Source: a virus
Strand: one strand, 5' to 3'
IMG/VR virus record: IMGVR_UViG_3300042868_002256
Location: 1-42,534 of that record
Length of the DNA: 42,534 nucleotides
Of this stretch, positions 64 through 24,820 are shown one piece after another. The notes below the pieces were generated by a model. The model was given only the letters and a program-made list of their open reading frames with translations. It did no database searches and was not told the DNA's origin. Both the position numbers and the translations under genes were made by a program. How positions within the stretch are numbered: the stretch's first letter is position 1; each line of letters opens with the position of its first letter.

Positions 64-66
64 TTA

Positions 67-74
67 TACCTTTG
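67..74 (+). promoter_or_regulatory. Bacteroidota-type -7 promoter box (TACCTTTG) for scaffold and capsid genes
   Basis: TACCTTTG matches the Bacteroidota -7 consensus TAnnTTTG and ends 16 nt before the scaffold ATG. The 21 bases at 66-86 recur exactly at 3363-3383 in front of another structural gene. No clear -33 TTG is visible at the expected distance. It would drive the unit ending at the terminator at 2671-2704. Confidence 0.65.
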
Positions 75-90
75 CTAAAACAAAAGTAAC

Positions 91-1254: not shown

Positions 1255-2643
1255 ATGCCAGTTTTACAACCAGGTGGAGTAGTTCCAGCAGGTGGAGCAG
1301 TATCGCAAGCGTTCGTAACCGCATTGTCTTTATTGAAGCCACAGAACTATGACCAATTTATTGAGGCTTATGGCGCTCAATCTTACACTCAAATCCTAGA
1401 AATGCTAGGTAACAAACAAGTAGTACAAGCTACAGAATTCGGTCACTACGAAAGCCGCGGTAAGCGTCATTTCGCAGTACAGACTACAGGTGCTCCAGCA
1501 GAAACTGCAGCATTCTCTGATGCAGATACTACTATCGAAGCAGGTGAAGGTGTTACAATCACCATTACTGCAGCTTCTCACTTCCCTAACACATCAGGTG
1601 GAGAATCTCCAATCCGTGTAGGTGAAGTTTATGAAATCGCAGCAACAGGTATTTTAGTAAAATGCGTAGCTGTAAACAAAGCAACTGCAGGTGCTCACAC
1701 TATGACAGTTGTTCCTTTACAAAGCACTTACGTTCTTAACTCAACTAACTTACCTTCAGGTAGCTGGTTATTAGGCCGTGGCGCATCTCTTTCTGGTGAG
1801 GCTTCAACTAAAGTTGATTCTCAAACAGAATTAGTGAATCGTTACACTAACACGACTACTATGATTCGTGAAGATTTCGAAATCACTGACAAAGCTATGA
1901 TGCAAGAGCTTTGGGTTAGCTTTGATGGCGAAGCGAAATATACTCGTAAAGGTGCTAAAGAAGCGGTTAATCGTTTCTTAAACAACAAAGAGTTTACTTT
2001 ACTTTTCGGTGTTCAAGCAACTAACAGCCGTGCAGGTGACAACGGTACTGCAGGTCTTATCCCTACTATCGAGTCTCGTGGTCAAACCCATCAGTGGAAT
2101 TCTGATAGCGTATTCGATATTGAAGATTTCCACGCAATTAGCCGTTTAGTAGACTTCAACGGTGGTGCTTCTGAGTATCACTTCTTGATGGATAGCTACT
2201 TACGTAGCAAGATTGACGATGCATTATTCGCTAAATACCAAAATGGTGCAATCCAGTGGGCTGCAGTAGGTGGTAGCAATGATGTAGCTGTTAAGTATGG
2301 TTTTGATAGCATCAAGATTGATGGTATTACTTACCACCTTAAGAAGTTCTTAGGATTCAACGCTGAAGCTGTATACGGTGTAGCTCCTGCTACAGAGAAG
2401 TACAAGAACTTCGGTATCTTGGCTCCTATGAAATCTAACAGAGATGCTCGTACAGGCGACAACATCCCTAGCTTACAAGTTGTTTACAACGAAATCGAGC
2501 CAGGTAAAGAGTTGAAAGTATGGGAAACTGGTGGTCTTGCTAAAGTTCCAACTTCTGATAAGTTGAACTTAGTTATCAGCCACGCTTGCTCTGCAGGTCT
2601 TCGTACATTCGCAGCTAACCAATTCGTAGTTGTGAAGCCATAA
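1255..2643 (+). CDS. Probable major capsid protein
   Basis: 462 residues, the usual size of an HK97-fold major capsid protein. It is the gene most clearly adapted for high expression: Arg is almost always CGT/CGC here (about 13 CGN to 1 AGA by eye), whereas neighbouring genes use AGA. It follows a scaffold-like gene and is followed at once by the strongest terminator in the window. The N-terminus is Gly/Ala/Val-rich and hydrophobic, followed by a helical stretch, then Thr/Gly-rich beta segments (residues 80-190). There is no signal peptide, and the ATG follows an A-rich leader. I did not recognise a family signature in the residues, so the call rests on size, place and codon use. Confidence 0.7.
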   Translation: MPVLQPGGVVPAGGAVSQAFVTALSLLKPQNYDQFIEAYGAQSYTQILEMLGNKQVVQATEFGHYESRGKRHFAVQTTGAPAETAAFSDADTTIEAGEGVTITITAASHFPNTSGGESPIRVGEVYEIAATGILVKCVAVNKATAGAHTMTVVPLQSTYVLNSTNLPSGSWLLGRGASLSGEASTKVDSQTELVNRYTNTTTMIREDFEITDKAMMQELWVSFDGEAKYTRKGAKEAVNRFLNNKEFTLLFGVQATNSRAGDNGTAGLIPTIESRGQTHQWNSDSVFDIEDFHAISRLVDFNGGASEYHFLMDSYLRSKIDDALFAKYQNGAIQWAAVGGSNDVAVKYGFDSIKIDGITYHLKKFLGFNAEAVYGVAPATEKYKNFGILAPMKSNRDARTGDNIPSLQVVYNEIEPGKELKVWETGGLAKVPTSDKLNLVISHACSAGLRTFAANQFVVVKP

Positions 2644-2670: not shown

Positions 2671-2704
2671 AAGGGCTCTAGTTAATACTAGGGCCCTTTT
2701 TTTT
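2671..2704 (+). terminator. Strong rho-independent terminator after the capsid gene
   Basis: An 11-bp stem (2671-2681 with 2688-2698, one T-G wobble) closes a TTAATA loop, and a run of T follows to 2704. It ends the scaffold-capsid transcript and insulates the next gene, which starts from its own promoter at 2710. Confidence 0.9.
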
Positions 2705-2709
2705 GTTCA

Positions 2710-2717
2710 TAAATTTG
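2710..2717 (+). promoter_or_regulatory. -7 promoter box (TAAATTTG) for the metallopeptidase-like gene
   Basis: TAAATTTG fits TAnnTTTG. It begins 5 nt after the T-run of the preceding terminator and ends 14 nt before the ATG at 2732. No convincing -33 element. Confidence 0.55.
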
Positions 2718-2731
2718 CTGAAATAGTAGCT

Positions 2732-3352
2732 ATGAGAAAAGTGTTCAGTAGATTCAAGGATAAGAATAGTATAAATTTCATAGAAGAAGTTATAGCTACT
2801 TGTAATATGTATGGAGTAAAGTGTAGTATAAGAGATGTATCATACGTAAAACTTGGTAGTTTTAAATGCGGAGGCTGGTTTGACGGAGAAGACAGAGAAT
2901 TAGTATGTAGTGTAAAGCACGATAAAGGATTAGCATTATTGGCTCATGAATTTTCGCACTTTCATCAGTGGGCAGAGAATAGCGATATATGGGATTTAGC
3001 TACAAGAAAGAACTCTCATTCAGCAATGCACGAATGGATAGAAGGGAAGCAAATTAGAGACATTAAAAAGCATATAGCAATATGTAGAGACCTAGAGGTA
3101 GATGCCGAAAAAAGGGCTGTTAAAATGATAAAGAAGTACAATCTACCTATCGACATAGAAGAGTACATTAGAGGAGCAAATGCTTATATATACTTTTACA
3201 ATTACATATTGAATATTAGAAGATGGAGTGCACCAAAGAATAGTCCGTATAGAAACAAGGTATTAATAGCTAGTATGCCAAAGACCTTTATGAAAGACTA
3301 TTCTGTTCTACCTGATAGGCTACTTAAGATATACCAAGAACAAGGTATATAG
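2732..3352 (+). CDS. HExxH zinc metallopeptidase-like protein
   Basis: 206 residues. HEFSH at residues 72-76 is a zincin HExxH motif inside a hydrophobic helix (LALLAHEFSHFHQW). A downstream helix carries E122 and E126 (LEVDAEKRA), placed like the third zinc ligand of ImmA/IrrE-type or SprT-type peptidases. The N-terminal part contains four Cys (24, 31, 46 and 59). No signal peptide or membrane segment, so it should act in the cytoplasm or virion. It sits between the capsid terminator and the next structural promoter, with its own -7 box, a moron-like layout. Prohead protease, cleavage of a host regulator, or a non-catalytic zincin are all possible; the substrate is unknown. Confidence 0.6.
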   Translation: MRKVFSRFKDKNSINFIEEVIATCNMYGVKCSIRDVSYVKLGSFKCGGWFDGEDRELVCSVKHDKGLALLAHEFSHFHQWAENSDIWDLATRKNSHSAMHEWIEGKQIRDIKKHIAICRDLEVDAEKRAVKMIKKYNLPIDIEEYIRGANAYIYFYNYILNIRRWSAPKNSPYRNKVLIASMPKTFMKDYSVLPDRLLKIYQEQGI

Positions 3353-3363
3353 TACAAAATACA

Positions 3364-3371
3364 TACCTTTG
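3364..3371 (+). promoter_or_regulatory. -7 promoter box (TACCTTTG), second copy of a repeated promoter
   Basis: TACCTTTG, 19 nt before the ATG at 3391. The 21 bases at 3363-3383 are identical to 66-86, extending through the start region into the leader, so the two structural units probably share promoter strength and leader properties. Confidence 0.65.
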
Positions 3372-3390
3372 CTAAAACAAAAGAAATAAA

Positions 3391-4269
3391 ATGGCAAAAG
3401 CTAAAAGTATTCTATCTGAAGATGGGGAACTCATCGAAGTAGAGCAACCTATTGTTAAGCAAGAGGTTAAGAAAAAAAGACAACCTTCGGAGTATGTATT
3501 CCAGTTGTTGGTAAATTTCAGAAATCAAGACGGAACCTTATCATTCCCTCCAACATTTGCTCTTAGAAATAAAAGCGTAGTGTTTGACGAGGAAACAGGT
3601 AGAGAAAGAGCCACAAGATACCTTGAGGGTATTTCTACTATCTGGCAAGATGAGCAGGATTCTTTACCTGAAAGCATTCAAAACAGAAGACCTAACATTC
3701 AGTTTAAAGACGGATTCTTAAGAGTTCCTTCTACAAAGCCTACATTGGTAGAGTTCTTATTAAAGAATGACCAATACGACAAGAAGAAGAACAAAATGGA
3801 TAAGTATGCTCCTGCAACCTACACAATGATTAATTATGAGGAAGCGGAAGAAGAGCAACTTAAGAAGTCTGAAAACAAGCTAGAAGCAATGAAGATTGCC
3901 ATGAACGCTAGCGAACAAGAAATGTTAGCTCATGCTAAATTCTTGAATGTTAGGTTTAGTTATGAAACAGGAGAACCAAGGTCTGAAAGCGCAATTAGGT
4001 CTGATTATGTGACTAAAGCACAGAACAATCCCGACTTATTCTTAAAGACTGTAAATAACCCTGTGGTAAAAGCTAAGTACATGGTAACTAAGGCTATGGA
4101 GAATAACCTTATTACTATTGCACATATCAAGGGTCAGGCACATTGGAGACAAACAAAACTCCTTATTGCTCAGATTCCTGACGGAGCAGATGCAGCTAAA
4201 TTCCTATCAGAATTTGCCCTTACAGAAAAGGGAGCAGAGTTCTATAACAAATTGAAAGAGTTATCTTAA
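3391..4269 (+). CDS. Putative virion structural protein
   Basis: 292 residues, soluble, with no signal peptide or membrane segment. Residues 1-30 are basic and charged; residues 35-130 look like a mixed alpha/beta domain; residues 150-185 form a Glu/Lys-rich helix; and the C-terminal 100 residues are helical. I recognise no family. It shares its promoter sequence with the scaffold-capsid unit and ends at a terminator, so it is a single-gene unit inside the head region. A minor head protein or a completion protein would fit; this is inference from place only. Confidence 0.5.
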   Translation: MAKAKSILSEDGELIEVEQPIVKQEVKKKRQPSEYVFQLLVNFRNQDGTLSFPPTFALRNKSVVFDEETGRERATRYLEGISTIWQDEQDSLPESIQNRRPNIQFKDGFLRVPSTKPTLVEFLLKNDQYDKKKNKMDKYAPATYTMINYEEAEEEQLKKSENKLEAMKIAMNASEQEMLAHAKFLNVRFSYETGEPRSESAIRSDYVTKAQNNPDLFLKTVNNPVVKAKYMVTKAMENNLITIAHIKGQAHWRQTKLLIAQIPDGADAAKFLSEFALTEKGAEFYNKLKELS

Positions 4270-6427: not shown

Positions 6428-9400
6428 ATGCCTCAAGAGAAAAAGCAGTTTCAAGGTATACTAAATCTTCAGGATTCAGAAGATATAATACAGCCAGGTC
6501 ATCACATTGATGCCATGAATATAACATTCAGAAATGGCATAGCTGAAAATATACTTGGTAATAGAGAATTAGGTAGTTTATCATTACTACTTCCTAGTAC
6601 AGGAACTAACGTATGTATATGTGCTTATAATGATGAATTAAGAGGTAAGTTGATTATATTCAACGCTAACTCTTTAGGGTTTGATGGGATATATAAAATG
6701 TCTACATTAGATTCCGCAGCAGCAACTAGAATATATCAAGCAGGAACTGCGTCTTATCCAAACATATTAAACTTCAATACAGCTAATAAAATACATTCTG
6801 TAAATATTCTTTACGGAGAAACAGAGGCTGAAGATATTCTATTATTCGTAGATAGCTTAGGAAGACCAACAAAAATGAAGATGTCTAGATTCATTGCTAA
6901 TGAATACTCTGCATCTGAAATAAACAGAACATACATTGATGTTCATGTTAATCCTCCGCTATCTCCTATTAAATGCACTTATGAGCATGACAATGCTGTT
7001 ACTGCAAATAACGTAAGAGACTCATTATTCCAATTTAGATATAGATTCGTTTACGATGACAACGAGAGAAGTACATGGTCTCAGGCTAGTATAACTCCTC
7101 TTCCTTTTGATTACCTAAGACAACAGGGTACAAAGAATAACTCAAGAATAGCGTTGTTCATGTCATCAGGTGGAAGTAATGTAAAGAAGATAGAAATTGC
7201 AGCAAAAGAAACTAAAGGAGAATCTACTTCAGATTACTTCTTAGTTGATTCAATAGATAAGTCAATATCTTCAGTTCCGGATAATTCAATATATAGATAT
7301 AACTTCTATAATAATGGAGTTTATGAATTCTTAGACCAGAGAGAAATAGACTTAATATTTGATATGGTTCCGGATGAGGCTAATACCCAAGAACTATTAA
7401 ATGGTAATGTTATTATATATGGCGGTATCAAAGAAGGGTACGATAATCCAACTGTTACAGGTTCATTATCTACTTTTTCCATAGACTACCTTACGCAGCC
7501 AAATGGACTACTATTCGTAGCTTCTGCAAGAGGAGAAGATACTTCAAATGTTGCCTCTGATATTGTTTTAACAATAGCTGGAACAGGAACATTAGACGGA
7601 AATAATAGAACATCTGTATTAGATTCTGTAAATGCTACGGGTCACACATATGTTATAAATATGGTAGACGCAGCAGGTACTGCTATTAATATCAACTATA
7701 ATGCTGCATCGCAAACAATAGATACAATACTTGCAGGAATTGGTTCTGCAGCTACGGGTCTTGGCTTTACTGTTTCAGCAGTTGCAAACCGTTCAATTAC
7801 AATATCTAAAGCAGGTGTTAAATTATTAGGTTCTTCATTTAGAACAAATAATCAAAATATATTATCATCTAGCTCTAGTGTTTATAGCGAACTAGCTAAG
7901 AACTCATTCTACTCATTTGGATTGGTTTACTTTGATGTGAAGGGTAAGACAAATGGAGCAGTATATCCTATTCAAGCATTTGATAAGAGTACTAGCGAAT
8001 ACGTTTCAGTACCAACAGCTAATACAGAATACATTAGTTTATCAATAACTAGTAGACCTCCATCATGGGCAGTAAAGTATTCAGTGGTAAGAAGTGAAAA
8101 TAAAACAATAGATACTCAGATAGCATGGGTTACAAACAATGTGGCTACTGGTTCTTCTGATACTACTATTGCATCAGATGCGTTAGTAACCTATGTTGGA
8201 ATTCAAAACATGACAACATATAATGAGATTCTAAATTCAGAAAGGGGGATAAACTACGACTTTGTAGAGGGGGATAGAATTAAGTTTATATCAAGATATC
8301 AATCAGGAAACTTTAATGACCTAAAAGCTACATTAGTTACAGGTACATATGATTATGAGATTATAGGAACAGAGATAAATCCTAAGATAGGCGGTAATGC
8401 TAAAGAAGGTAAGTATATCAAATTAAGATACTCTGATTTGTCGGGAGACTTATCTACTGAATTCAAGGTTGACGGAAGTATGTTTTTCGGTAATTATCTA
8501 GTTGTAATCTATAGACAAAAGAAAAGGTCAGCAGATGATAAGACATTCTTTTACGAATTCGGTCCTAGTTTAGGAATAGGTGATGCAGGATTAGCAACTA
8601 GATATCATCTAGGTAATACAGATTCTGCTTATACAAATAATGGGAATCAGTCAACAGACCTAGTTACCCCTGCAAAAATTAATTTTCATACGGGAGATTG
8701 TTATACAAAATTCAGAAAGAATTTGCCAATCGTACTTGGAAGATACGAAGGCTCATTAAATTCATATAGTCATTCTGTAAGTGCTGGAAATATATACTCT
8801 ACAATGAAGATAGGCCTTCCTAGCCAAGACAATGCATCATTTAGAGTTAGCTCTCAAACAGAGCAATTATCTAACGGATATGGATTAGGAGATTATCCAT
8901 TATACGCAAATGATGCAGGATTTTTCTTCTTCAACAAATCAACAACAGAAGAACTTAAGATAAGAATCACAGGTTCTTTTAGGGCATATGGAACTAAGAC
9001 ATCTTATATGAAACTTGTTCTTAAAAAAGTTCCTTCGCTTGCTCCTCTTACTGTTACTACAACAGACTTGACAGGAGTTGTTGATATATCAAATGCGCCT
9101 GTTGCATCCGGAAGTCCAGGAACACCGGTTGATGTTCAGTTCGACAAAGTAATATCTGTTAGACAAACTGATAAGATTTCGCTGATGGCAGAGGGTACAC
9201 CATTTGCTCAGTCAGTTGTTTTATTTTCAGAATTCAATATTGAAGTTTATAGAAACGTGGATAGAATACCTGTTACAGAAGAGATTGTATCAGATTCAAG
9301 TAGGCTTTATTTTAACGGTAACGGAAGGCCGTTTGTTTTTGATAGAACAGCTAAGAGAGGATATTATGGAAATCTAGTTAGATATGGTCAAAATTACATA

Positions 9401-10414
9401 GCAGGTAGCTCAATAAATGACACTAATAGATTCTACGATAGCAACCAAGATGAATACGACCTTCAGCACGGGGATATTGAAAGATTTAAATCTAGAGACA
9501 AGTCTCTTAGAGTTTTCCAACAAAGAAACACAGGAACGGTTCCTATATTCCAATCATTGATTCAAGATACATCAGGCTCTAGCCTAATAGCTCAAAGTGA
9601 TAAAATCTTAAATAAAATTCAGTACTATTCAGGTAACTATGGGATAGGTAATCAGCCATGCTCATTAGCATCATCATCTTTTGTTGACTATTTTGTTGAT
9701 ACTGTAAATGGAGCTATAGTAAGAGTTAGTTTAGATGGAATTACCGCATTAAGTAAGACATATAAGCTAGATGATTGGGCTGTTAGTAAGCTATCTAAAT
9801 ACTATAAGTTTGGATATAAAGATGTGATATTCGGGGAATACGACAAGTTAAATAACAACTATGTAGTACACCTTCAAGCTGTGCCTAATATAGAACCTGA
9901 TTTAGCTATTACAGAGACATATACACTTGCTTTCAATGAGCAGTCTAACTCGTTTGTTAGTTTTTACAGCTACTACCCTGAAGCAATGGTTTTCTCTAAT
10001 GGAGGATTTTATAGCATGAAATCAGGTAAGGCGTATTTACACGATGTAGTTACCGCAGGCTCAAGAGCTAGGTTCTATGGGGTTTCAGGAGCATGTTATA
10101 TACAATGCGTATTCAACTCTTCAAGAGATGCTAAAAAGAGATTTAATGCATTAACCTACCTTGGAGATGGAGTTTGGGAAGTAGTATCTAATACTTCTAT
10201 GGGGCAAGATAGCAACTTGATAGAAGCTGACTTTAGTACCGTAGAAGACAAGAAACACGCAACAATGCTAAGGGATTCAAATAGTCCAGGAGGATTGATT
10301 AATGGTGATGTATTAAAGGGTGATTGGATTAAGATAAAACTATCAGCGAAATCACCACAAAATAAAGTAAATTTGCATTTAGTAGAAGTAAACTTGTTAA
10401 TACAAAATAGATAA
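6428..10414 (+). CDS. Large tail hub / stabilisation-type structural protein
   Basis: 1328 residues. The N-terminus (QFQGILNLQDSEDIIQPGHH, then IDAMNITFRNGIAENILGNR) matches a pattern I associate with tail stabilisation or tubular proteins of short-tailed phages: an FxGxLN start, then ALN/AMN and a repeated GN. The rest is mostly beta-strand with Ser, Thr, Asn and Tyr, without membrane segments or a protease motif. Length and place, between connector-size genes and the ejection-type proteins, fit a beta-propeller-rich hub forming the body of a short tail. The podovirus assignment of the whole window leans on this gene and the three after it. Exact homology was not searched. Confidence 0.6.
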   Translation: MPQEKKQFQGILNLQDSEDIIQPGHHIDAMNITFRNGIAENILGNRELGSLSLLLPSTGTNVCICAYNDELRGKLIIFNANSLGFDGIYKMSTLDSAAATRIYQAGTASYPNILNFNTANKIHSVNILYGETEAEDILLFVDSLGRPTKMKMSRFIANEYSASEINRTYIDVHVNPPLSPIKCTYEHDNAVTANNVRDSLFQFRYRFVYDDNERSTWSQASITPLPFDYLRQQGTKNNSRIALFMSSGGSNVKKIEIAAKETKGESTSDYFLVDSIDKSISSVPDNSIYRYNFYNNGVYEFLDQREIDLIFDMVPDEANTQELLNGNVIIYGGIKEGYDNPTVTGSLSTFSIDYLTQPNGLLFVASARGEDTSNVASDIVLTIAGTGTLDGNNRTSVLDSVNATGHTYVINMVDAAGTAININYNAASQTIDTILAGIGSAATGLGFTVSAVANRSITISKAGVKLLGSSFRTNNQNILSSSSSVYSELAKNSFYSFGLVYFDVKGKTNGAVYPIQAFDKSTSEYVSVPTANTEYISLSITSRPPSWAVKYSVVRSENKTIDTQIAWVTNNVATGSSDTTIASDALVTYVGIQNMTTYNEILNSERGINYDFVEGDRIKFISRYQSGNFNDLKATLVTGTYDYEIIGTEINPKIGGNAKEGKYIKLRYSDLSGDLSTEFKVDGSMFFGNYLVVIYRQKKRSADDKTFFYEFGPSLGIGDAGLATRYHLGNTDSAYTNNGNQSTDLVTPAKINFHTGDCYTKFRKNLPIVLGRYEGSLNSYSHSVSAGNIYSTMKIGLPSQDNASFRVSSQTEQLSNGYGLGDYPLYANDAGFFFFNKSTTEELKIRITGSFRAYGTKTSYMKLVLKKVPSLAPLTVTTTDLTGVVDISNAPVASGSPGTPVDVQFDKVISVRQTDKISLMAEGTPFAQSVVLFSEFNIEVYRNVDRIPVTEEIVSDSSRLYFNGNGRPFVFDRTAKRGYYGNLVRYGQNYIAGSSINDTNRFYDSNQDEYDLQHGDIERFKSRDKSLRVFQQRNTGTVPIFQSLIQDTSGSSLIAQSDKILNKIQYYSGNYGIGNQPCSLASSSFVDYFVDTVNGAIVRVSLDGITALSKTYKLDDWAVSKLSKYYKFGYKDVIFGEYDKLNNNYVVHLQAVPNIEPDLAITETYTLAFNEQSNSFVSFYSYYPEAMVFSNGGFYSMKSGKAYLHDVVTAGSRARFYGVSGACYIQCVFNSSRDAKKRFNALTYLGDGVWEVVSNTSMGQDSNLIEADFSTVEDKKHATMLRDSNSPGGLINGDVLKGDWIKIKLSAKSPQNKVNLHLVEVNLLIQNR

Positions 10415-12427: not shown

Positions 12428-15400
12428 ATGGCAGATACCCAGAACGACAATCAACAGCAGCCACCTAGAGGAGGATTATTGAGAGCTATTTTTGATAGAG
12501 GAGTACAAGATGGAACTATTCAAGCTAGACCTATTAGTCCTGCTAGAAGGGTACAACCTTTATTAACAGGTGTTACATCTGAAGCTCAACCTAAGCCACT
12601 TTCTCTACAGGGGGCAGGAATGGAAAAACCAAGAAAAGCAATAGTTCAACCAAAACCAAAATTAGTTGGTAAAGTAGAGAAGGGTGCTCCGGTTCAGCCA
12701 ATAGCTGTTCCTGAAGTTAGTGATATACAATCACTTGCTCCTCAAAGACAAATAACAGAAGCTGAGATTGAACAGAATAGAACAAAGTATGTTCCTGAAG
12801 CTATAGAAAATACAATAATCACAGCTAGAAATAGTTCGTCAGACAAGACATATTTCGACAATTTTATTGCTCCTAATTTAAGAAAAACATTATCTGAAGA
12901 TATTAAATCAGGTGAGCTTGATGCTGGCTTAAATAAAGATAGGTATCCTATTGTAATAAGAAGGGTAGACGGCATATTTGAAAATACATTACAAGGTGCA
13001 ATCGATAGGGGTAATACTTTAATAGGTCTAGATGAGTATGATAGGTTAGATAAACAAGGTAAAATACAATTCCTTTCAGGTAAAAGCACATTAAGAGTGC
13101 CTACCCTCTCTCAAGTTGGTTCGCCAACAAGAGATTTATATTCAGGTCAAACAACTCAAGAATACCAAGGCGCTGTACCAATAGAAAGAGGAACAGCAGG
13201 AGAAATAGCTTATGGTGTAGGCGGTGTCCTTCCGGACATTGCTACAGGTATTGTAACAGCCCCATTAAATTTGGTAGTTCCTGGAGCTAGCTTATCTTCA
13301 GTTGCTGCCATACAAGGTAGGACAGGAAGAATTAATGCGGCTCAACAAGCGTTTCAAGTAGCAAAGACCAATGGTCTAAATGATGAAGAAGCGTTACAGG
13401 TTGCAGAAAATGCAGAAAAAACAGGAGCTGTAACAGGTGCATTAGAAGGTGCCGCTAGTCAGTTCTTTGGTACTAAAATCCTTAAGGCATTCGCTGAACC
13501 TACTGCTAAAACGGCTTTAACAGGTTTTGTTAAGCAAGCTAAACAATTTGCTAAAGGAGCTATTACTACCACGGGTAAGGCAGCACTTCCATTAACTGCT
13601 GATATGGGCGTTGCTGGTACAATGGAGATAGTTAGACAAGAAGCTCTTGCAGACCAGAATTTAGAAAATCCAAATAGAAATAAAGAGATTTTAGATAACG
13701 TGAAAATGGAAGGTGCTGTTGGTTTAGCATTTGCTATTGTTGGTAAGCTAACTAAGGTTCCTAAATATCTTCAATCTTATGCAACTAGTGCATTAGCCAC
13801 ATTAGACCCTAATGATTTAGTTGATTACGCAACAGAAATGGAATTAAGAGGAGAGGCTCCAGCAGGTTTTACCGATACTGTTAGAGAAGAGGTAAAGAAA
13901 TACAATGAAGCAAAAAGTGCAGCAGGAGATGTTGTAGATGCAGAAATAGAGCCAACGATTGTTGGATTGATAATGAAGAAGAAGAATCTTCAAGAAAAAC
14001 TTAAAGAGGCAGATGATACAATAAAGCCTCAGATACAAGCACAAATAGACGAATTAAATACAAGAATTACTACTACACTTGATACGAAAGTTCCTCAAGA
14101 AGTAGATGATAAAACACAATCTAAAATAGAACAAGATGCCACTAAAGAAAGCGAGCAAATCTCTACCGTACAAGAAGGCGGTACAGCAGAACCTACGGGA
14201 GTTATTCCTGGACAACAAGAAATCGGGCAAAGAGAAGGGAGCCAACGGCAAGCCACGGAGCAGGGCGCAAATATTGGCGATAGCAATATCAGCCGCCAAG
14301 CGGAAGTAACTCCTACTCAAGAGAAGACAAAAAGAGCAGGAGATTCTATTAGAGCATTCAAGATAGAACAAGCTGCTAATACATTAGATACCAACATATT
14401 TGGTATACCTATTGCAATATATAATGGAGTTCTAGAAGCAGCAGCAACAGCTACTGATTTAGGAACTGATGTAGTAACAGCTGTTAGGAAGTATTTAGCA
14501 GAACAGAACCCTGATGATATAGCAGGCATAGATGAGAATGCATTAATAGATGATGTTACTTCTAAGCTACCTAAAAAAGAAAATCCGACTGTCACAGAAG
14601 ATGATGTAGTTAATTATGAAGCAACTTCAGAAGAAAGAAGTAAGCAAGAGAAGAAGGCATCTAGAGCTGTAAATAAAACAGCATGGAGAAGGATATTAAA
14701 GGCTGTTGATGACAATCAAGTCAATGTAATAAAAGAGCTTAGAAAGACGGGTAAGTTTTCAGACTTATTGGTTTCTGCACTAGAAGCTATTAGACACACC
14801 TCAGCAGATTCTAACGAAAGAATAAATGCATTCAATAAAAATGTATATGATGGATTGAGCGATAAGCCTACAATTCAATTAGGCAACTCTCAGTTTAGCG
14901 AGAAAGGATTACTAGAGGCTGTTATTAAAGCAAAAAGATTAATAGAAATTCAAAGAATGTTAAGCGATAAATTCGCTAGATTCCAACAATTTGATGCTGA
15001 GTATAATACTGCTTTAGCAGAGTATGAGGCAATAGATGAAGCTACGGCAAAGAATAAAAAGAAGCTAGATAAGGTCTCTGAAAAGATAAATGAATTAAAT
15101 AAGAGAATCGTATCAGCTAACTTAGATGAAGCTAATCAAGAAGAGTTTGACAAGTTAGTTGAACTTGTTAGAGACCAGCACGATAAAGCTGACGCTATAA
15201 TGGCTGAGATTGAATCTATCTCTGAGAAAAATAAGGTAGCTATTGCAAAAGTAAGAGAGACTAGAAATAGAAGACAGACAGCTTTAGAGTATATAGCTAA
15301 CAGAGGAGTATTGTTACAGAACGAAGATGGGACATACGCTTTAGGTAACTATAAAATGGGAGCCATAAGAGATGGGATTCCGTATACCGCAAATGAAGCT

Positions 15401-18136
15401 CAAGCATTTTTAAATGCAGCTTCTAAATCAGATAAATTTGCTGATATTGATGCTAGGTCGGAAGAAGCGTTCTCTGCATTTAAATCAATATTAGATGAAC
15501 AATACGACGCAGGATTAATATCTCAAGAAGTATATGATGATTTATCTCAATACAAGTATGTTCCAATTAAATATATATCAAGTGTATTAATGGATGGCAA
15601 TAGTGCTTTCATGAAAAGTAGAGGTGGTGCTAATATAAAATCATTAACAGGCGGTTCTGATGGCTCTCAAATAACAGACTACTCTACATTATTCAATATA
15701 TATGCTACAACTGCTCTTAAGAATATAGCAACTAATAAAACGCTTCAATTACTAGAGAAGGCAATTAAGTCAGACCTTCCTACAATGAGTGCTACTAATA
15801 TGTATAATCAAGATATAGTTGTAAAATTAGCAGAAACTGAAAAGAAAAAAGACGGAACAGATAAGATAGACAAGTTTGGTAATAAGGTATACGTAAAACC
15901 TAAAGACGGTTTTAGTAATATTAAGGTTTATAATAAAGATGGCATAACAATGCTAACCGCACCTACTTGGTTCGTAGATGAGTTTTATGGCAACTCTGAA
16001 TATAATAAGGGATTAAGTATGTTATCTTCAGTACTTGGAGTTAACTTACTCAGAAAGGCTGTTACTATTGCAAACCCAGCTTTTGGTGTAGCCCAGTTAG
16101 TAACACTAGACCCTATACAAGCTATACTAACAGCCAAAGGATTCAATCCTATACTTCCTATTGCTTATGCTGAAATAGTAACAGAATGGCCATTAGCTGC
16201 AATAAGTATTCTAAAGAAAAAACCTATTTATAACGAGGCTGTTAAGAATGGTGTATTTGGCGATATGGCAGCAAGGTCCGGTATAGATAAGTTCTATGAT
16301 AATGCAATATTTACAGGAGTAAAAGATATAGATGATAAGATTGCTGATAAAAACATATTTGAGAAGGTTTTATTTGGAGCAGATATATCTAGAATACCAG
16401 GAATAAAACAAGCTATTTCTTTTGGAGAATCAACAGTAGGTGCATCAGAAAAAATGACAAGACTTATAGTCTACAAGAAGTCTAAAAAGTATTTCATGGA
16501 TAAAGGTTTCTCTTCAGAAGAAGCAGGTCAACTAGCGGCATCTGAAGCTAGAAATACTGCAAACTTTTCTAGAGCAGGTGACATTATAAAGCAGGCTAAC
16601 CATTTAATTCCATACCTATCTGCAGCGTATGCTACAAAAAGAGCAGTTGTTAAATCAATAAAGAGAGACCCAGCTAAAGCAACTTTCGTAATTTCTCAAA
16701 TGGCATTAGGAGGTATGGCTCTTACCTTATGGTCTATTGGTGCACTTTCAGATGACGAAAAAGAAAAAGAGTATTGGGGTGAAATGTACAAGGCGCTTCC
16801 TGATTATTACAAGAAGAATTACGTAGTAATAAGACACCCTAAGCACAATATAGGAGATGATATTACGAATGCATTTATTAGAGTTCCTTTGCCATTTGGA
16901 GCAAAAGAAATGTACAAGGGAGTTATAAGCGCTAAAATGGGCGAGTATATGGATGAAGCTACAACTCCAACAGAAGCTGCTATATCTTCAATACTATCAA
17001 CTCTTGATATGGTCGGATTAGAAGATGTTTCACTTCCTCCTCTTGTAAATGCATTAGTTAAGTATCAATTAAACCTAGACCCGTACACTGGAAATAAGAT
17101 AGTTTACGATGAATCTACGGGAGAGTATAGCTTCCTTGAAGAAAAGCAGGGAACACTACCTATGATTCAAGCTGCTGCACAAAAGAGTAGAGCATTCTCT
17201 GCTCCTAGATTGCAAGCTGCTATAGAATCATATACAGGTAAGTTTGAAAGAAACCCTTTAACTCAAATAACAGTTAATTCATTGAACTCTATGTATGAAT
17301 TTGCTGCAGGAAAAGAGAACTCTGTATTGAAGGCTATCAAAGATGACCCTAATAAACTTATAGAAAGCCCATTAGCATCTGTATCAGGAAGATTCTTCGC
17401 AACTCCTACCAAGTACTATAAAAACAAGTTTAATACAATCCTTACTGATTATATATACTCTAAACTTAATAGCGATTTTAATGGAGCGCTAGTAGATTTG
17501 GCAGGTAAAAGAATGGAAAAGATTGGCATATCAAGCATGACATCCAATGAACAAATGGACTTTTTTGTTAAGGATGCTGAAAAATTCCTAAAAGATGTTG
17601 AGAGAGATTTAGGAAAGCAAGAAGCTTTAAAATATGAGAAAAAATTAAGAGATGCTAGAGTTGGAGAAATAAAGGATATACTTAAATTAAAGATAATCGA
17701 GGATGATTCTTTGAAAAAACTAGCAACAGAGACTAATCCTGCTATTAAAGGAAGGGCTGCTTATGAGATACTAAAGAATGCTTCAGATAATCCAAATAGA
17801 AAGACACTTATAGCAACAGCACTACAGGCTACCGAGTTCTTTAGAGACCCTGCAATAGTAGGTTCTTACGTGGAGATGATGCTAGAAGACAAGTTTGGTA
17901 CAGAATACAGGGATAAGTTCAAAGCAACCTTGAAAGGGAATAGAGCTACTGCTATAGAAAAAATGTATAGAGAATCAAAGCAGTTTAGCTCGGATTCAGA
18001 AGAGGTAAGAAACGAGAAGATTGGTATGATAGATGTAATGAAGTTCTATATAGATAGTAAGAATTACGATAGAATGACAAGAAAGGGAGACACTATAACT
18101 GAAAGGTTATTTGGGTTCGACTACCCTAGGAAGTAA
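12428..18136 (+). CDS. Very large internal virion / ejection-type protein
   Basis: 1902 residues, the largest product here. Visible regions: a disordered Pro/Gln/Lys N-terminus (1-110); a Gly/Ala-rich, partly hydrophobic helical region (about 255-450); a low-complexity linker (about 560-640); a coiled-coil segment (about 835-955); and a hydrophobic C-terminal half with possible membrane helices near 1185-1260 and at about 1415-1440 (FVISQMALGGMALTLWSIGA). I see no clear transglycosylase or protease motif. The C-terminal region loosely resembles large polyvalent-protein-associated (LPD38-like) domains, a recollection rather than a search. Size, membrane-active segments and place third after two helical proteins suggest a T7 gp16-like ejection or cargo protein. 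An odd GC-rich patch lies in the linker. Confidence 0.55.
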   Translation: MADTQNDNQQQPPRGGLLRAIFDRGVQDGTIQARPISPARRVQPLLTGVTSEAQPKPLSLQGAGMEKPRKAIVQPKPKLVGKVEKGAPVQPIAVPEVSDIQSLAPQRQITEAEIEQNRTKYVPEAIENTIITARNSSSDKTYFDNFIAPNLRKTLSEDIKSGELDAGLNKDRYPIVIRRVDGIFENTLQGAIDRGNTLIGLDEYDRLDKQGKIQFLSGKSTLRVPTLSQVGSPTRDLYSGQTTQEYQGAVPIERGTAGEIAYGVGGVLPDIATGIVTAPLNLVVPGASLSSVAAIQGRTGRINAAQQAFQVAKTNGLNDEEALQVAENAEKTGAVTGALEGAASQFFGTKILKAFAEPTAKTALTGFVKQAKQFAKGAITTTGKAALPLTADMGVAGTMEIVRQEALADQNLENPNRNKEILDNVKMEGAVGLAFAIVGKLTKVPKYLQSYATSALATLDPNDLVDYATEMELRGEAPAGFTDTVREEVKKYNEAKSAAGDVVDAEIEPTIVGLIMKKKNLQEKLKEADDTIKPQIQAQIDELNTRITTTLDTKVPQEVDDKTQSKIEQDATKESEQISTVQEGGTAEPTGVIPGQQEIGQREGSQRQATEQGANIGDSNISRQAEVTPTQEKTKRAGDSIRAFKIEQAANTLDTNIFGIPIAIYNGVLEAAATATDLGTDVVTAVRKYLAEQNPDDIAGIDENALIDDVTSKLPKKENPTVTEDDVVNYEATSEERSKQEKKASRAVNKTAWRRILKAVDDNQVNVIKELRKTGKFSDLLVSALEAIRHTSADSNERINAFNKNVYDGLSDKPTIQLGNSQFSEKGLLEAVIKAKRLIEIQRMLSDKFARFQQFDAEYNTALAEYEAIDEATAKNKKKLDKVSEKINELNKRIVSANLDEANQEEFDKLVELVRDQHDKADAIMAEIESISEKNKVAIAKVRETRNRRQTALEYIANRGVLLQNEDGTYALGNYKMGAIRDGIPYTANEAQAFLNAASKSDKFADIDARSEEAFSAFKSILDEQYDAGLISQEVYDDLSQYKYVPIKYISSVLMDGNSAFMKSRGGANIKSLTGGSDGSQITDYSTLFNIYATTALKNIATNKTLQLLEKAIKSDLPTMSATNMYNQDIVVKLAETEKKKDGTDKIDKFGNKVYVKPKDGFSNIKVYNKDGITMLTAPTWFVDEFYGNSEYNKGLSMLSSVLGVNLLRKAVTIANPAFGVAQLVTLDPIQAILTAKGFNPILPIAYAEIVTEWPLAAISILKKKPIYNEAVKNGVFGDMAARSGIDKFYDNAIFTGVKDIDDKIADKNIFEKVLFGADISRIPGIKQAISFGESTVGASEKMTRLIVYKKSKKYFMDKGFSSEEAGQLAASEARNTANFSRAGDIIKQANHLIPYLSAAYATKRAVVKSIKRDPAKATFVISQMALGGMALTLWSIGALSDDEKEKEYWGEMYKALPDYYKKNYVVIRHPKHNIGDDITNAFIRVPLPFGAKEMYKGVISAKMGEYMDEATTPTEAAISSILSTLDMVGLEDVSLPPLVNALVKYQLNLDPYTGNKIVYDESTGEYSFLEEKQGTLPMIQAAAQKSRAFSAPRLQAAIESYTGKFERNPLTQITVNSLNSMYEFAAGKENSVLKAIKDDPNKLIESPLASVSGRFFATPTKYYKNKFNTILTDYIYSKLNSDFNGALVDLAGKRMEKIGISSMTSNEQMDFFVKDAEKFLKDVERDLGKQEALKYEKKLRDARVGEIKDILKLKIIEDDSLKKLATETNPAIKGRAAYEILKNASDNPNRKTLIATALQATEFFRDPAIVGSYVEMMLEDKFGTEYRDKFKATLKGNRATAIEKMYRESKQFSSDSEEVRNEKIGMIDVMKFYIDSKNYDRMTRKGDTITERLFGFDYPRK
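14215..14312 (+). other. GC-rich patch inside the 1902-residue gene
   Basis: About 100 bp clearly richer in G and C than the surrounding gene, with codons rare elsewhere here (CGG, GCC, GCG, GGG, CGC). It encodes a polar Gln/Arg/Glu/Ser stretch (roughly residues 597-628) inside a disordered linker and keeps the frame open. A short inverted pattern (GGCGATA then TATCAGCC) lies within it. Possibly a small in-frame insertion from other DNA. Confidence 0.5.
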
Positions 18137-21600: not shown

Positions 21601-24266
21601 TTGCAGCAGGAGCAAGTTCTACTGCACAAATGACATTAGGCTCAACAGGTAATCTTACTTTAAATACAAATCAAAATGCATCAACTTCTTTAGAAGTAAT
21701 AAATACGACAAGTGGAACAGGTGCATTGGCTAGATTAGTTGTTACATCAACTCTTGGAAGTTTAACATTTGGTAAATTTTCAACCGCTACAACTGTTTAT
21801 AAAAATGTATCAGGAAATGATGGTTATATCTATCTTAATGGAACAGGAAATATTTCAATCCTTAACGACTACGGAACAGGCAATATAAACTTTGCAGCAG
21901 GTGGTTCATCTACTGCTCAATTAACTTTAAGTTCAGGTGGTGATTTAGCATTAGGTACTACTACTTTTGGAACTGCAACTAAGTTTACATTAGGAGGCTC
22001 TGAAACTGCATCAAGTGCAATAGCAAGAGGTGGATTAATAAACACTACCTTAGTAGCAGCAGCAAACAATGATGTATTAGTAGGATTAGATATTAACCCT
22101 ACGTTTACTAATGGAGCGTTTACGGGGGTAAGTAATGTTGGGTTAAGAACACAATCCATATTAGTTGGCACTTCAATAATTACAGGGGTTACTGATGCTA
22201 TTCAAGTTAAATTATCGAATGCAACAGTATCACTACAAAATACAACAGCTACAAATTATGCAGGTGTTAATATGTATGACGATAGTAATACATTAACAGG
22301 AAGTTTTGCAATAGGCGGAACTGCAGCATCAGTACCTTCGCTTGCAGGTAATTTTTTATTTGGTGCAAGAAAATCAACTGGTAAAACAATAATTGTAGGT
22401 GGTGTAAGTGCTACTCAATTAGCTACAATGTTTTCTACAGGTAACTTCCTTATTCAAAATGCAGGTACACACACAGACGCAGGTTTCCGTCTTGACGTTA
22501 ATGGTACTGCAAGGATACAGGGAAACACAAATATAATTGGTAACTTATCATTTAATTCTTCTACAAGTCAATTTATTATTAATACAGGTGCTTCAGGTAA
22601 TGTTGGCAGACCATCTATTTGGAATCAAGGCGTTTATAGTACACTTGGTCTTTTAGGTAGTTCACAGGGGATTATTCAAGATATTTTTTTATTTGGATTT
22701 GCATATACAGCAGATGGTCTAGGTGGTCAAAGGTCATGGTTTAGTGATAATGCTTCCATTGTTAACATTAACATGGGTTGGGGTAATAAGAGCGGTGGCA
22801 CAGGTAATAATGCTTCTACATTATTAATAAGCAACACAATTAATTTTACCACAACTAATACCTACACTTTAAGAGGTATTTACTACAATCCAACAGTAAC
22901 TGCACTTAATGGTGCTAACCACATAGCTATTCAAACAGTAAGTGGAGATGTCTTACTTGGAACAACAAGTGGTAACGTAGCAATAGGAACATCTACTTTA
23001 GCAACTGCAACAGAACTTACTTTAGGTGGTAGTCAAACTGCATCAAGTGCAATAGCAAGAGGTGGATTAATAAACACTACCTTAGTAGCATCTGCTAATA
23101 ATGACGTTCTTGTTGGTCTTGATATTAACCCTACATTTACTAATGGAGCGTTTACAGGTGTAACGAACTTAGCTGCAAGAATAATACAAGTAACAGGAGC
23201 AACCGGTAATAATACTCTTAGATTGGCTAATAATAGTGGGAATGCGAATGTTATTCAATTTTGGAGTACAAATACTGCTTCACAACAATCTTACATAATA
23301 TCAACAAATTCAACATTTGGTTATGGAACTTATGTTGGAAATCAATTAAATCTTGGTGGTGGAACAGGTGGTGTTGCTTTAAGAACAAATAATTCAGCTC
23401 CAATAAGATTTTATGCAACAAATTCTGATGCTGATTTTTCTACTGTTCAAATGCAAATGTTTGGTGCAACAGGAAATGTTTTATTACAAAATGGTGGCAC
23501 ATTCACAGACGCAGGCTTTAGGTTAGATGTAAATGGTACTGCAAGAGTGCAAAGTTTCACAACAATAAATGCTGCACCTGCGGTAAATGGTGAATCTGCT
23601 TTATTAGTTCAACCTACAACAAATAATAGTACATCTTCTGCTTTAGTTTTTGGTATATATAACAATGCTACAATCAATACAATAACTTCTACAAGTAGTT
23701 ATACAGGTATTTATTCAAGAAATTCAGTAGGAGCAACATTAGTTCAAGCTGTTGCAGTTCAAGGCGATGTAAACATTTCTGCAGGAACAACAAGTACTGC
23801 ATTAGGTTTTACTTGTAATAGTGCAGTATTAGGAACAGGAACAGCATCAACATTTGTTGGATATAATTTTACTGATGTATTTAAGGCAGGTAGTGGTGCA
23901 GTAGGTAGACAAATTGGTATAAGAATAATGAACTTAACGGCAGGTAGTACTGCAAATGTTGGTTTACTATTTAATAATGCTTTAAATACAAGTGTTAGTG
24001 GAACTTGGGATATATATTCTCAATCAGGTAATAACTCATATTTAGCAGGAAGCATAGGTATAGGTGCATCAACAATAAATGCATCAGCTAAAGTACAAAT
24101 AGATAGCACAACTCAAGGATTCTTACCACCTCGCCAAAATCAAACACAAAGAACAGCAATTAGTAGCCCAGCAGAAGGTTTAATAGTTTATCAAACCGAT
24201 GGAGTAGCAGGTCTGTATGTATATAGTGGAGGCTCTTGGAAATCACTCACAATGACTACCATATGA
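18699..24266 (+). CDS. Large repetitive tail fibre / receptor-binding protein
   Basis: 1855 residues. Residues 1-100 are helical and charged, a likely anchor to the tail. The rest is Thr/Ser/Asn/Gly-rich beta repeats, including RLDVNGT-type motifs (near residues 328, 873, 1264 and 1609) and three copies of a 41-residue unit containing VGLDINPTFTNGAFTGV. A Gly run near residue 428 begins a different beta-sandwich-like segment (about 430-590) that may be a separate receptor-binding domain. The end (GFLPPRQNQTQRTAISSPAE, then GLIVYQT and SGGSWKSL) is a C-terminus I associate with Bacteroidota phage fibres. Its TGA overlaps the start codon of the endonuclease. Host-range determinant by inference. 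Confidence 0.8.
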   Translation: MGYTLTQINTILSKADRAIHILGSVAYNKKFAELDETYWYDRDIIFLYKYAAEWGKVNDRVGTARMDSVVERLEAMMEIYDYGSLTPIYSQVAQVTGINTVNFLTEETDPTVPAWVKLITESDIDNWDESYTDRINSLTTIGSSGTATLVSNVLNIPAYTLSGLGGVPTSRQLTINGTTFDLSANRSWSVGTHTGNLTSGYIPKATGATTLTDGLLYDTGSAVLLGTQTAGSAKFMVYSATADNHYQAIGTAPSFRFADTIVSPTYTGIIGLATATNNFIIGAAAGDMVLANNTTSSVGNFLFGTGATERMRITPTGNVSINNTNNTYRLDVNGTGRFTGQLRLESTITNGTYTYTLPGATGTLALTSQLTSGTVTSVAASITGNSIGITGSPITSSGTLAFAFAGNATQYVRGDGALATLPTSGGGGGASVSYYLNGSINQGTIGGVTYYEMNKTPIIGAGTDFSRSSNGYIASFLTDANDPALLNIPAGNWNFETYFQASSGGGSPTFYIELYKYDGTTFTLIASNSGSPKLINDGTNIEAYFSALAVPQTTLTLTDRLAIRIYVTTAGRTITMHTENGHLCQVITTFTTGLTALNGLTAQVQYFATGTSGTDFNISSATATHTFNLPTASATNRGALSSADWTTFNNKQNALTNPITGTGTSGQVAYFNGTSSLTSSATFAFTPTSQLLVNNSVTAASAIAIGTNLTPTLTAAANNDVLVGLDINPTFTNGAFTGVRNYGLLVRNGRVGFGTSTPLYNLDIRGSGSGPANPISVNIQNSNSGGESYIGIRNDLNYYAAFEVFGSTWADNTLLRNTALLSSGSGITNLAFITLSTANISFRTNSTGTTNERLTIFGSSGNVGINQTTDAGFRLDVNGTARVQDNLTISKNQNGITRTDIINTTAGNSAYTEYRLSPSVSSGTASFGKYSTSTTAFKMISANDSYIYNGALGDINILNDNASGIIKFAAGASSTAQMTLGSTGNLTLNTNQNASTSLEVINTTSGTGALARLVVTSTLGSLTFGKFSTATTVYKNVSGNDGYIYLNGTGNISILNDYGTGNINFAAGGSSTAQLTLSSGGDLALGTTTFGTATKFTLGGSETASSAIARGGLINTTLVAAANNDVLVGLDINPTFTNGAFTGVSNVGLRTQSILVGTSIITGVTDAIQVKLSNATVSLQNTTATNYAGVNMYDDSNTLTGSFAIGGTAASVPSLAGNFLFGARKSTGKTIIVGGVSATQLATMFSTGNFLIQNAGTHTDAGFRLDVNGTARIQGNTNIIGNLSFNSSTSQFIINTGASGNVGRPSIWNQGVYSTLGLLGSSQGIIQDIFLFGFAYTADGLGGQRSWFSDNASIVNINMGWGNKSGGTGNNASTLLISNTINFTTTNTYTLRGIYYNPTVTALNGANHIAIQTVSGDVLLGTTSGNVAIGTSTLATATELTLGGSQTASSAIARGGLINTTLVASANNDVLVGLDINPTFTNGAFTGVTNLAARIIQVTGATGNNTLRLANNSGNANVIQFWSTNTASQQSYIISTNSTFGYGTYVGNQLNLGGGTGGVALRTNNSAPIRFYATNSDADFSTVQMQMFGATGNVLLQNGGTFTDAGFRLDVNGTARVQSFTTINAAPAVNGESALLVQPTTNNSTSSALVFGIYNNATINTITSTSSYTGIYSRNSVGATLVQAVAVQGDVNISAGTTSTALGFTCNSAVLGTGTASTFVGYNFTDVFKAGSGAVGRQIGIRIMNLTAGSTANVGLLFNNALNTSVSGTWDIYSQSGNNSYLAGSIGIGASTINASAKVQIDSTTQGFLPPRQNQTQRTAISSPAEGLIVYQTDGVAGLYVYSGGSWKSLTMTTI
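20793..23162 (+). repeat. Three copies of a 123-bp coding repeat in the tail fibre
   Basis: Copies at 20793-20915, 22008-22130 and 23040-23162 encode near-identical 41-residue units. Copies 2 and 3 are almost identical in their first 55 bases and differ mainly at synonymous sites later; copy 1 has a different first third. This points to internal duplication with partial later divergence. Confidence 0.85.
21303..22513 (+). repeat. 41-bp exact repeat in the tail fibre (DAGFRLDVNGTAR unit)
   Basis: Bases 21303-21343 and 22473-22513 are identical and encode TDAGFRLDVNGTAR. A third copy from 23505 encodes the same peptide with different codons. Related LDVNGTGRF or LDVTGTGRF motifs occur near 19685 and in the second fibre near 26195. 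Confidence 0.85.
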
Positions 24267-24820
24267 TAGGAGTATATAAAATAACATTTCCGAATGGAGT
24301 CTACTACTTCGGTCAAGCAGTTGATTTAAGAAGAAGGGAGTACCAGCATAATAGAGAAGTCAAAAAAGGTAGACATAGTAATCCTAGGATTCAGCATTGT
24401 TGGAATAAGTATGGAGAGTTTAAGTTTGAAATACTAGAAGAATGTGAAAAAGATGACTTAAATAGAATTGAAAGCGACTATATAATAAAGCACATAGATG
24501 ACAAACTGTGTTGTAATATATGCAGAGAAGGTAGCTCAAGAAAAGGATTAGTAATGCCTGAAGAACAGAAAGAGAATCTTAGAAATTACAATAAAATAAT
24601 TGGAAAATCTAAGCCTGTCTATATGTTTACTAAAGATTTTGATTTACTTGGAAGATATGAGTCTATTGTAGAGGCTGAAAAATCTGTTAATGCTAATCCT
24701 AAAGATGTACAAAAATCCTGTAAAAACAGAGGTAAGTATAATGTTAAAGGGTATAAGTTTTTATTTGCAGCAGAAGTAGATATATTTCTAAACTACGCAA
24801 AAGAAATGGTAAAATTATAA
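24263..24820 (+). CDS. GIY-YIG homing endonuclease
   Basis: 185 residues from the ATG at 24263, chosen because it overlaps the fibre stop (ATGA) and puts GVY at residues 3-5; an upstream ATG at 24236 would add 9 residues inside the fibre gene. The GIY-YIG core is seen as GVY(3-5) and YFG(15-17), followed by the expected Arg cluster (DLRRREYQH) and an acidic helix (IESDYIIKH). The C-terminal part (FDLLGRYESIVEAEKSVN, then VKGYKFLF) resembles a NUMOD1-type DNA-recognition module. These are selfish enzymes that nick a cognate site and spread by recombination. It lies exactly between two fibre-region genes. Confidence 0.85.
   Translation: MIGVYKITFPNGVYYFGQAVDLRRREYQHNREVKKGRHSNPRIQHCWNKYGEFKFEILEECEKDDLNRIESDYIIKHIDDKLCCNICREGSSRKGLVMPEEQKENLRNYNKIIGKSKPVYMFTKDFDLLGRYESIVEAEKSVNANPKDVQKSCKNRGKYNVKGYKFLFAAEVDIFLNYAKEMVKL

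What the first reader, a model, noticed from the sequence alone, without database searches (positions are those of the whole stretch)
2705..3363. Moron-like unit encoding an HExxH protease inserted next to the capsid gene
The gene has its own -7 box immediately after the capsid terminator, and the next structural gene restarts from another promoter, the classic layout of a moron. The product has HEFSH and a likely third-ligand helix. Independent expression of a zinc protease-like protein could target a host regulator (ImmA/IrrE-like), a defence protein, or virion maturation.
Basis: partly seen in the sequence, partly recalled or inferred. Interest (0 to 1): 0.6.

Follow-up and report, generated by a model that had tools for sequence, protein, structure and literature searches.

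The report
Phage zinc-protease gene beside capsid gene
A virus of Flavobacterium-like bacteria carries, slotted between two virion genes, a small stand-alone zinc protease of a widespread but uncatalogued phage family, probably used to cut a protein inside the host cell.

Summary
ORF 2732-3352 (206 aa, HEFSH at residues 72-76) lies between the major capsid gene and the 292-aa gene, after a strong terminator (2671-2698) and its own Bacteroidota-type TAnnTTTG box (2710-2717). It is an insertion: 39 relatives have nothing between the two genes; the window and four 98%-MCP-identical relatives carry it. H72, E73, H76, E122, D124 and R128 are invariant in 34 diverse homologues. AlphaFold (pLDDT 96) gives a zincin core whose nearest solved folds are the ArdC protease domain and IrrE/PprI. 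The family has over 350 members in IMG/VR, many on large-phage contigs, but one in 84,980 prokaryote species genomes and none in plasmids, and no Pfam, NCBIfam or PHROG model. Sister phages carry a 30%-identical family member about 10 kb upstream that falls outside the window gene's clade, so the two lineages probably acquired it separately. Best reading: a horizontally shuffled accessory gene for a cytoplasmic zinc metallopeptidase that cuts a host or competitor protein. Head maturation is unlikely because head-bearing relatives lack it. The target is unknown. It is not a perfect moron (no terminator of its own) and not a demonstrable member of M78, ArdC or SprT.

The parts
1255..2643 (+). 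Major capsid protein gene (462 aa), upstream neighbour
   Evidence: phrog_13704 virion structural protein E=6.5e-35, SU10_MCP weak; homologues in Elemovirus and Cellulophaga Pachyviridae phages
2671..2698 (+). Intrinsic terminator of the capsid gene (stem 12 bp, T run)
   Evidence: Terminator scan; a similar stem-loop is seen in the empty-site relatives L011-L013
2710..2717 (+). Bacteroidota-type -7 box TAAATTTG, 14 nt before the start codon
   Evidence: Pattern match; such boxes sit upstream of 11/46 genes vs about 1 expected; identical in four relatives
2732..3352 (+). Zincin-fold metallopeptidase gene, 206 aa (the finding)
   Evidence: ORF; family conservation; AlphaFold pLDDT 96.3, pTM 0.91; nearest folds ArdC and IrrE; dN/dS 0.04-0.05
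2945..2959 (+). HEFSH codons (H72, E73, H76): predicted zinc ligands and general base
   Evidence: Invariant in 46/46 and 34/34 aligned family members
3095..3115 (+). ExDxExR codons (E122, D124, E126, R128): E122 predicted third zinc ligand
   Evidence: E122, D124, R128 invariant, E126 conservative; on helix 111-135 of the model
3364..3371 (+). -7 box TACCTTTG of the next gene
   Evidence: Same 21-base stretch as before the 381-aa gene at 66-86
3391..4269 (+). 292-aa gene, downstream neighbour, conserved next to the capsid gene
   Evidence: phrog_34748 E=3.4e-14; directly follows the capsid gene in 39 relatives

Best explanation
An accessory, horizontally shuffled phage gene encoding a stand-alone cytoplasmic zinc metallopeptidase of the zincin superfamily, with an ArdC/IrrE-type core (N-terminal helix, small beta sheet, HExxH helix, glutamate helix). 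H72 and H76 with E122 hold the metal and E73 activates water. The enzyme is made from its own promoter box during infection and most likely cleaves a specific bacterial (or competing element's) protein, such as a regulator or defence component, to the phage's benefit. Shown by sequence: insertion at this site, family conservation, selection, predicted fold, separate placement in sister phages. Inferred: metal binding, catalysis, promoter activity, cytoplasmic action. Unknown: the substrate.
For: Complete catalytic set kept down to about 26-30% identity: G48, F50, L57, H72, E73, H76, Q79, E122, D124, R128, Y152 invariant in 34 diverse members. Confident models for two divergent members both rank ArdC and IrrE/PprI at the top (Z 5.7-6.9), with many metallopeptidases below. 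Insertion: 39 empty sites vs 5 filled, window included. The sister lineage holds a divergent copy elsewhere, outside the window gene's clade in the tree. Contexts vary between phages: tail sheath/tube, MoxR-vWA pair, prohead protease region, genes of unknown function. dN/dS 0.04-0.05 against close relatives. Viral restriction: 357 relatives in IMG/VR, 1 in genome contigs, none in plasmids. Precedent: phage and plasmid zincins proposed to target host proteins (PMC5512222, PMC7824862).
Against: No substrate evidence and no conserved neighbour that would be a natural target (no adjacent XRE repressor). Structural matches are modest (Z about 6; no Foldseek E below 0.001). Some M78-type proteins act by binding, not cleavage (Rir, described in PMC7907104). 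Its place among late structural genes would also suit a late or virion role.
Confidence: 0.6

Rival explanations
1. Virion maturation protease: it processes capsid, scaffold or an injected cargo protein during head assembly.
For: Sits directly after the capsid gene; in other phages it sits between tail sheath/tube and baseplate genes or near portal and prohead protease. Iyer et al. 2021 suggested maturation for another jumbo-phage zincin. The window encodes a 1902-aa LPD38 polyvalent protein that could need cleavage.
Against: Relatives with homologous capsid and 292-aa genes show no copy: records of 49-73 kb such as G082, G087, G093, G096, plus phi46:3 and an Elemovirus. The genes it sits beside differ between phages.
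Confidence: 0.15
2. DNA-protein crosslink or replication-fork protease of SprT/Spartan type used for phage genome maintenance.
For: SprT-like proteins are common in phages; an entry titled 'Mechanism of protease dependent DPC repair' (6mdw) is among the weak structural matches of the second model (Z 4.8).
Against: No SprT Pfam match; no fused DNA-binding or zinc-ribbon domain in about 200 aa; ArdC and IrrE score higher.
Confidence: 0.1
3. Non-proteolytic binder: a zincin fold kept for zinc-dependent binding and sequestering of a host or phage regulator.
For: Precedent of Rir, which blocks repressor Crh oligomerisation without cleavage despite HEXXH (PMC7907104). Conservation extends well beyond the active site (N150, Y152, Y173).
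Against: The general base E73 is invariant along with the ligands, which binding alone would not require.
Confidence: 0.1

Closest known systems
ArdC metallopeptidase (MPTase) domain, plasmid R388 (PDB 6sna, 6i89)
   Same: Best structural match for both models: Z 6.1 (rmsd 3.7, 112 residues) and Z 6.9 (rmsd 5.3, 116 residues), aligned to the C-terminal peptidase part; HExxH then Glu-helix layout
   Different: No N-terminal ssDNA-binding ArdC-N domain; stand-alone about 200 aa; no Pfam match
IrrE/PprI and ImmA, Peptidase_M78 (PDB 3dti, 8sln)
   Same: Z 5.7-6.4 over about 100 residues; profile alignment in register over the GxF strand and HEFxH
   Different: M78 model does not match; profile-profile probability only 24% (best of 40 unrelated controls 19.5%); no adjacent XRE repressor; no GAF-like domain. 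From general knowledge, the spacing from HExxH to the ligand Glu is shorter in IrrE than the 46 residues here
Zincin-like metallopeptidases of phages: ArdC-like, SprT-like and AMR59696.1 (Iyer et al. 2021, PMC7824862) and polyvalent-protein MPTases (Iyer et al. 2017, PMC5512222)
   Same: Phage-encoded zincins, many of patchy distribution, proposed for host targeting or maturation
   Different: Whether any of these is the same sequence family was not tested (their sequences were not retrieved here); polyvalent MPTases are domains of large proteins, this one stands alone
Phage moron
   Same: Accessory gene with its own promoter-like box between two conserved genes; site empty in most relatives
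   Different: No terminator after the gene; whether the phage is temperate is unknown

Membership tests
Zincin superfamily (gluzincin type: HExxH plus Glu) | HExxH motif with a further invariant Glu on a downstream helix | tested here: met
   H72, E73, H76, E122 invariant in 34/34 and 46/46; helices 66-81 and 111-135
Zincin superfamily (gluzincin type: HExxH plus Glu) | Zincin core fold | tested here: met
   High-confidence models; top structural rows are metallopeptidases for both, though Z is only 6-7
Zincin superfamily (gluzincin type: HExxH plus Glu) | Zinc bound and peptide bond cleaved | not testable with these tools
   Needs purified protein
Peptidase_M78 (ImmA/IrrE) | Match to the Pfam M78 model | tested here: not met
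   No PF06114 match at E up to 1 for the window protein or up to 0.1 for the seven members of A1
Peptidase_M78 (ImmA/IrrE) | Fold of the IrrE peptidase domain | tested here: inconclusive
   Z 5.7-6.4 over about 100 residues; profile-profile 24%
Peptidase_M78 (ImmA/IrrE) | Adjacent XRE-type repressor as substrate | tested here: not met
   Window neighbours are the capsid and 292-aa genes; no repressor family among the 25 most frequent PHROG matches of 126 neighbours scanned
ArdC | N-terminal ArdC-N ssDNA-binding domain | tested here: not met
   206-aa single-domain protein, no ArdC-N match
ArdC | C-terminal MPTase domain fold | tested here: inconclusive
   Best structural match for both models, Z 6.1 and 6.9, but no Pfam match
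SprT/Spartan | Match to the SprT-like model | tested here: not met
   No match in Pfam or NCBIfam
Prohead maturation protease | Conserved part of the head module in relatives | tested here: not met
   39 empty sites; records without any copy
Moron | Inserted between genes that are adjacent in relatives | tested here: met
   Start-to-end distance 13-198 in 39 relatives vs 747
Moron | Own promoter | tested here: inconclusive
   Box present and of an enriched type; transcription not measured
Moron | Own terminator | tested here: not met
   No terminator-like site after 3352 on the + strand up to 6500 in the consensus scan

The most novel reading that the evidence does not exclude
A virus-restricted family of stand-alone zinc metallopeptidases, spread by horizontal transfer among phages from about 60 kb to over 600 kb, cuts a conserved bacterial protein that many phages need to remove; sister phages acquired divergent versions separately at different sites because losing the function is costly.
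Probability: 0.3. Interest if true: 0.7.

Novelty: new member of a known kind. Interest (0 to 1): 0.43.

Why it matters
It defines a sequence family (several hundred viral members, invariant active site, confident fold) that Pfam, NCBIfam and PHROGs lack, so its members are annotated as hypothetical proteins, including in cultured Xanthomonas and Stenotrophomonas jumbo phages. Cultured hosts make the substrate search feasible. Apparent independent gain by sister phages hints at a common host-side target.

Tried and rejected
Pfam, NCBIfam, PHROGs and PADLOC scans gave only chance-level hits. The PDB sequence search gave no relative. Foldseek against the PDB found nothing significant, and against viral models only weak neighbours, several of them SprT/IrrE-type; VIA-align was needed. 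DPC-repair protease, LF, PPEP, YfcM, BlaR1 and selecase rows scored lower than ArdC and IrrE. Simple presence/absence was rejected once the second, upstream copy type was found. Movement of one ancestral copy within the genome was considered: disfavoured because the upstream copies fall far outside the window gene's clade, though their branch is long (about 3 changes per column) and the tree tool warns about such branches, so it is not excluded. Recent allele exchange was considered because dS of the gene (0.6-0.7) exceeds that of its neighbours; left as unproven because identity also dips over the 220-aa gene and capsid genes can have low dS from codon bias. Retrieval of R388 for a direct ArdC profile failed; the M78 comparison used archaeal sequences only, so it is a shallow test. 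Paper searches found no description of this family.

Full report
What is there. The window is a 42,534-base IMG/VR virus record. Its capsid gene (1255-2643) resembles those of Elemovirus and Cellulophaga phages of Bacteroidota, and the 1328-aa protein at 6428 matches the crAss muzzle family, so it is probably a distant relative of crAss-like podoviruses. Between the capsid gene and a 292-aa gene lies ORF 2732-3352, 206 aa, with HEFSH at residues 72-76. It is the only HExxH in any ORF of 60 aa or more in the window.

Signals. The capsid gene ends in a strong terminator at 2671-2698. TAAATTTG at 2710-2717 precedes the start codon by 14 nt. The TAnnTTTG motif is not over-represented in the whole window, but it occurs within 45 nt upstream of 11 of 46 genes, against about one expected and at most 4 in 500 shuffles, so the boxes are likely real promoters (inference; the motif is the known Bacteroidota -7 element, from general knowledge). 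The 292-aa gene has its own box at 3364-3371. No terminator-like site follows the protease gene, so it is not a full promoter-gene-terminator moron.

Insertion. In 39 relatives with capsid proteins 44-59% identical and both genes readable, the capsid and 292-aa genes are at most 198 bases apart, usually with a box and with nothing between (terminators were read by eye in L011-L013); in the window and four relatives with 98-99% capsid identity the distance is about 750 bases and holds the gene. One more distant relative (L176) has two other genes at this site, so the site may accept insertions repeatedly.

A second location. Of the related records, four first-found ones and 22 of 44 further ones carry a divergent family member, 27-32% identical to the window protein in the four compared. 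In those four it directly follows a small gene at the start of the rightward operon; the window clade's version of that small gene matches RepL and is not followed by a protease gene. Across records it lies 9-13 kb upstream of the capsid gene (G073 fits if that record is circular). Records of the window's clade have one copy each, the one beside the capsid gene. In the tree the window gene sits inside a clade of 45 copies, many from large-phage contigs, while the upstream type lies far outside it. The simplest reading is separate acquisitions, but the outside branch is long and movement of one ancestral copy is not fully excluded. Several long records in the same capsid clade show no copy (G082, G087, G093, G096), nor do the complete phi46:3 genome and the Elemovirus tested; apart from phi46:3 these may be incomplete.

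The family. A scan of IMG/VR found 357 stretches encoding relatives and a second scan 45 of the upstream type (overlap between scans not removed). One relative was found in 84,980 prokaryote species genomes, in an archaeal MAG contig, and none in plasmids; the genome scan used short exact patterns and can miss diverged members. Cultured members are Xanthomonas phage XacN1 and Stenotrophomonas phages CM1 and RAS14, hypothetical proteins where annotated. No Pfam, NCBIfam or PHROG family matches meaningfully. Contexts differ: tail sheath and tube (L058, L063, L065, L069, L071), a MoxR AAA+ / vWA pair or its ATPase in about eight of 47 non-redundant loci, the portal/prohead protease region in XacN1 and RAS14. 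Selection against amino-acid change is strong, dN/dS 0.04-0.05.

Fold. AlphaFold2 on 46 sequences gave pLDDT 96.3 and pTM 0.91; the upstream type gave 92.6 and 0.89. Foldseek found no significant PDB match. VIA-align placed ArdC first and IrrE/PprI close behind for both (Z 5.7-6.9), tied within about 1 Z, with other metallopeptidases among the lower rows. Z of this size can be a common arrangement, but the agreement of two models, the class of the hits and the invariant motif together make a zincin core very likely. A profile comparison with archaeal M78 sequences aligned HEFxH in register at 24% probability, against 19.5% for the best of 40 unrelated controls: not evidence of membership.

Mechanism. 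Most likely a soluble zinc peptidase acting inside the infected cell on a host or competitor protein (0.6). Phage and plasmid zincins have been proposed to target host proteins or to process phage proteins (PMC5512222, PMC7824862), and IrrE cleaves repressor DdrO (PMC7907104). Maturation (0.15), crosslink repair (0.1) and non-proteolytic binding (0.1) remain possible.

Verdict. Real feature, reader largely right about layout and fold; a new family of a known kind; substrate unknown.

Noticed in passing
window 66-86 and 3363-3383: Two genes share an identical 21-base promoter-region stretch ATACCTTTGCTAAAACAAAAG, which suggests co-regulated promoters.
   Followed up: partly
window 12428-18136: 1902-aa protein with an LPD38 domain (large polyvalent protein associated), probably an injected cargo protein.
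   Followed up: no
window 6428-10414: 1328-aa protein matches the crAss muzzle family (E=1.5e-16), linking this group to crAss-like viruses.
   Followed up: no
L026 453-3928, also L048, L055, L056, L064, L049, L051, L081: The peptidase gene often lies next to a MoxR-type AAA+ ATPase gene, usually with a vWA protein gene nearby, in several branches of the tree.
   Followed up: partly
L176 4395-6262: A distant relative has two other genes (112 aa and a 501-aa protein that looks like an SGNH hydrolase) between the capsid and 292-aa genes: the same site holds different insertions.
   Followed up: no
window 2801-2803 and 2867-2869 (residues C24 and C46 of the 206-aa protein): C24 is nearly invariant (32/34) and C46 common (26/34) in the family; role unknown.
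   Followed up: no
L101 3992-4600: The only family member found in prokaryote genome records is on a 75-kb contig of an archaeal MAG; it may be a binned virus contig.
   Followed up: no
window 24236-24820: GIY-YIG nuclease gene with a TTG start, overlapping the end of the 1855-aa gene.
   Followed up: no
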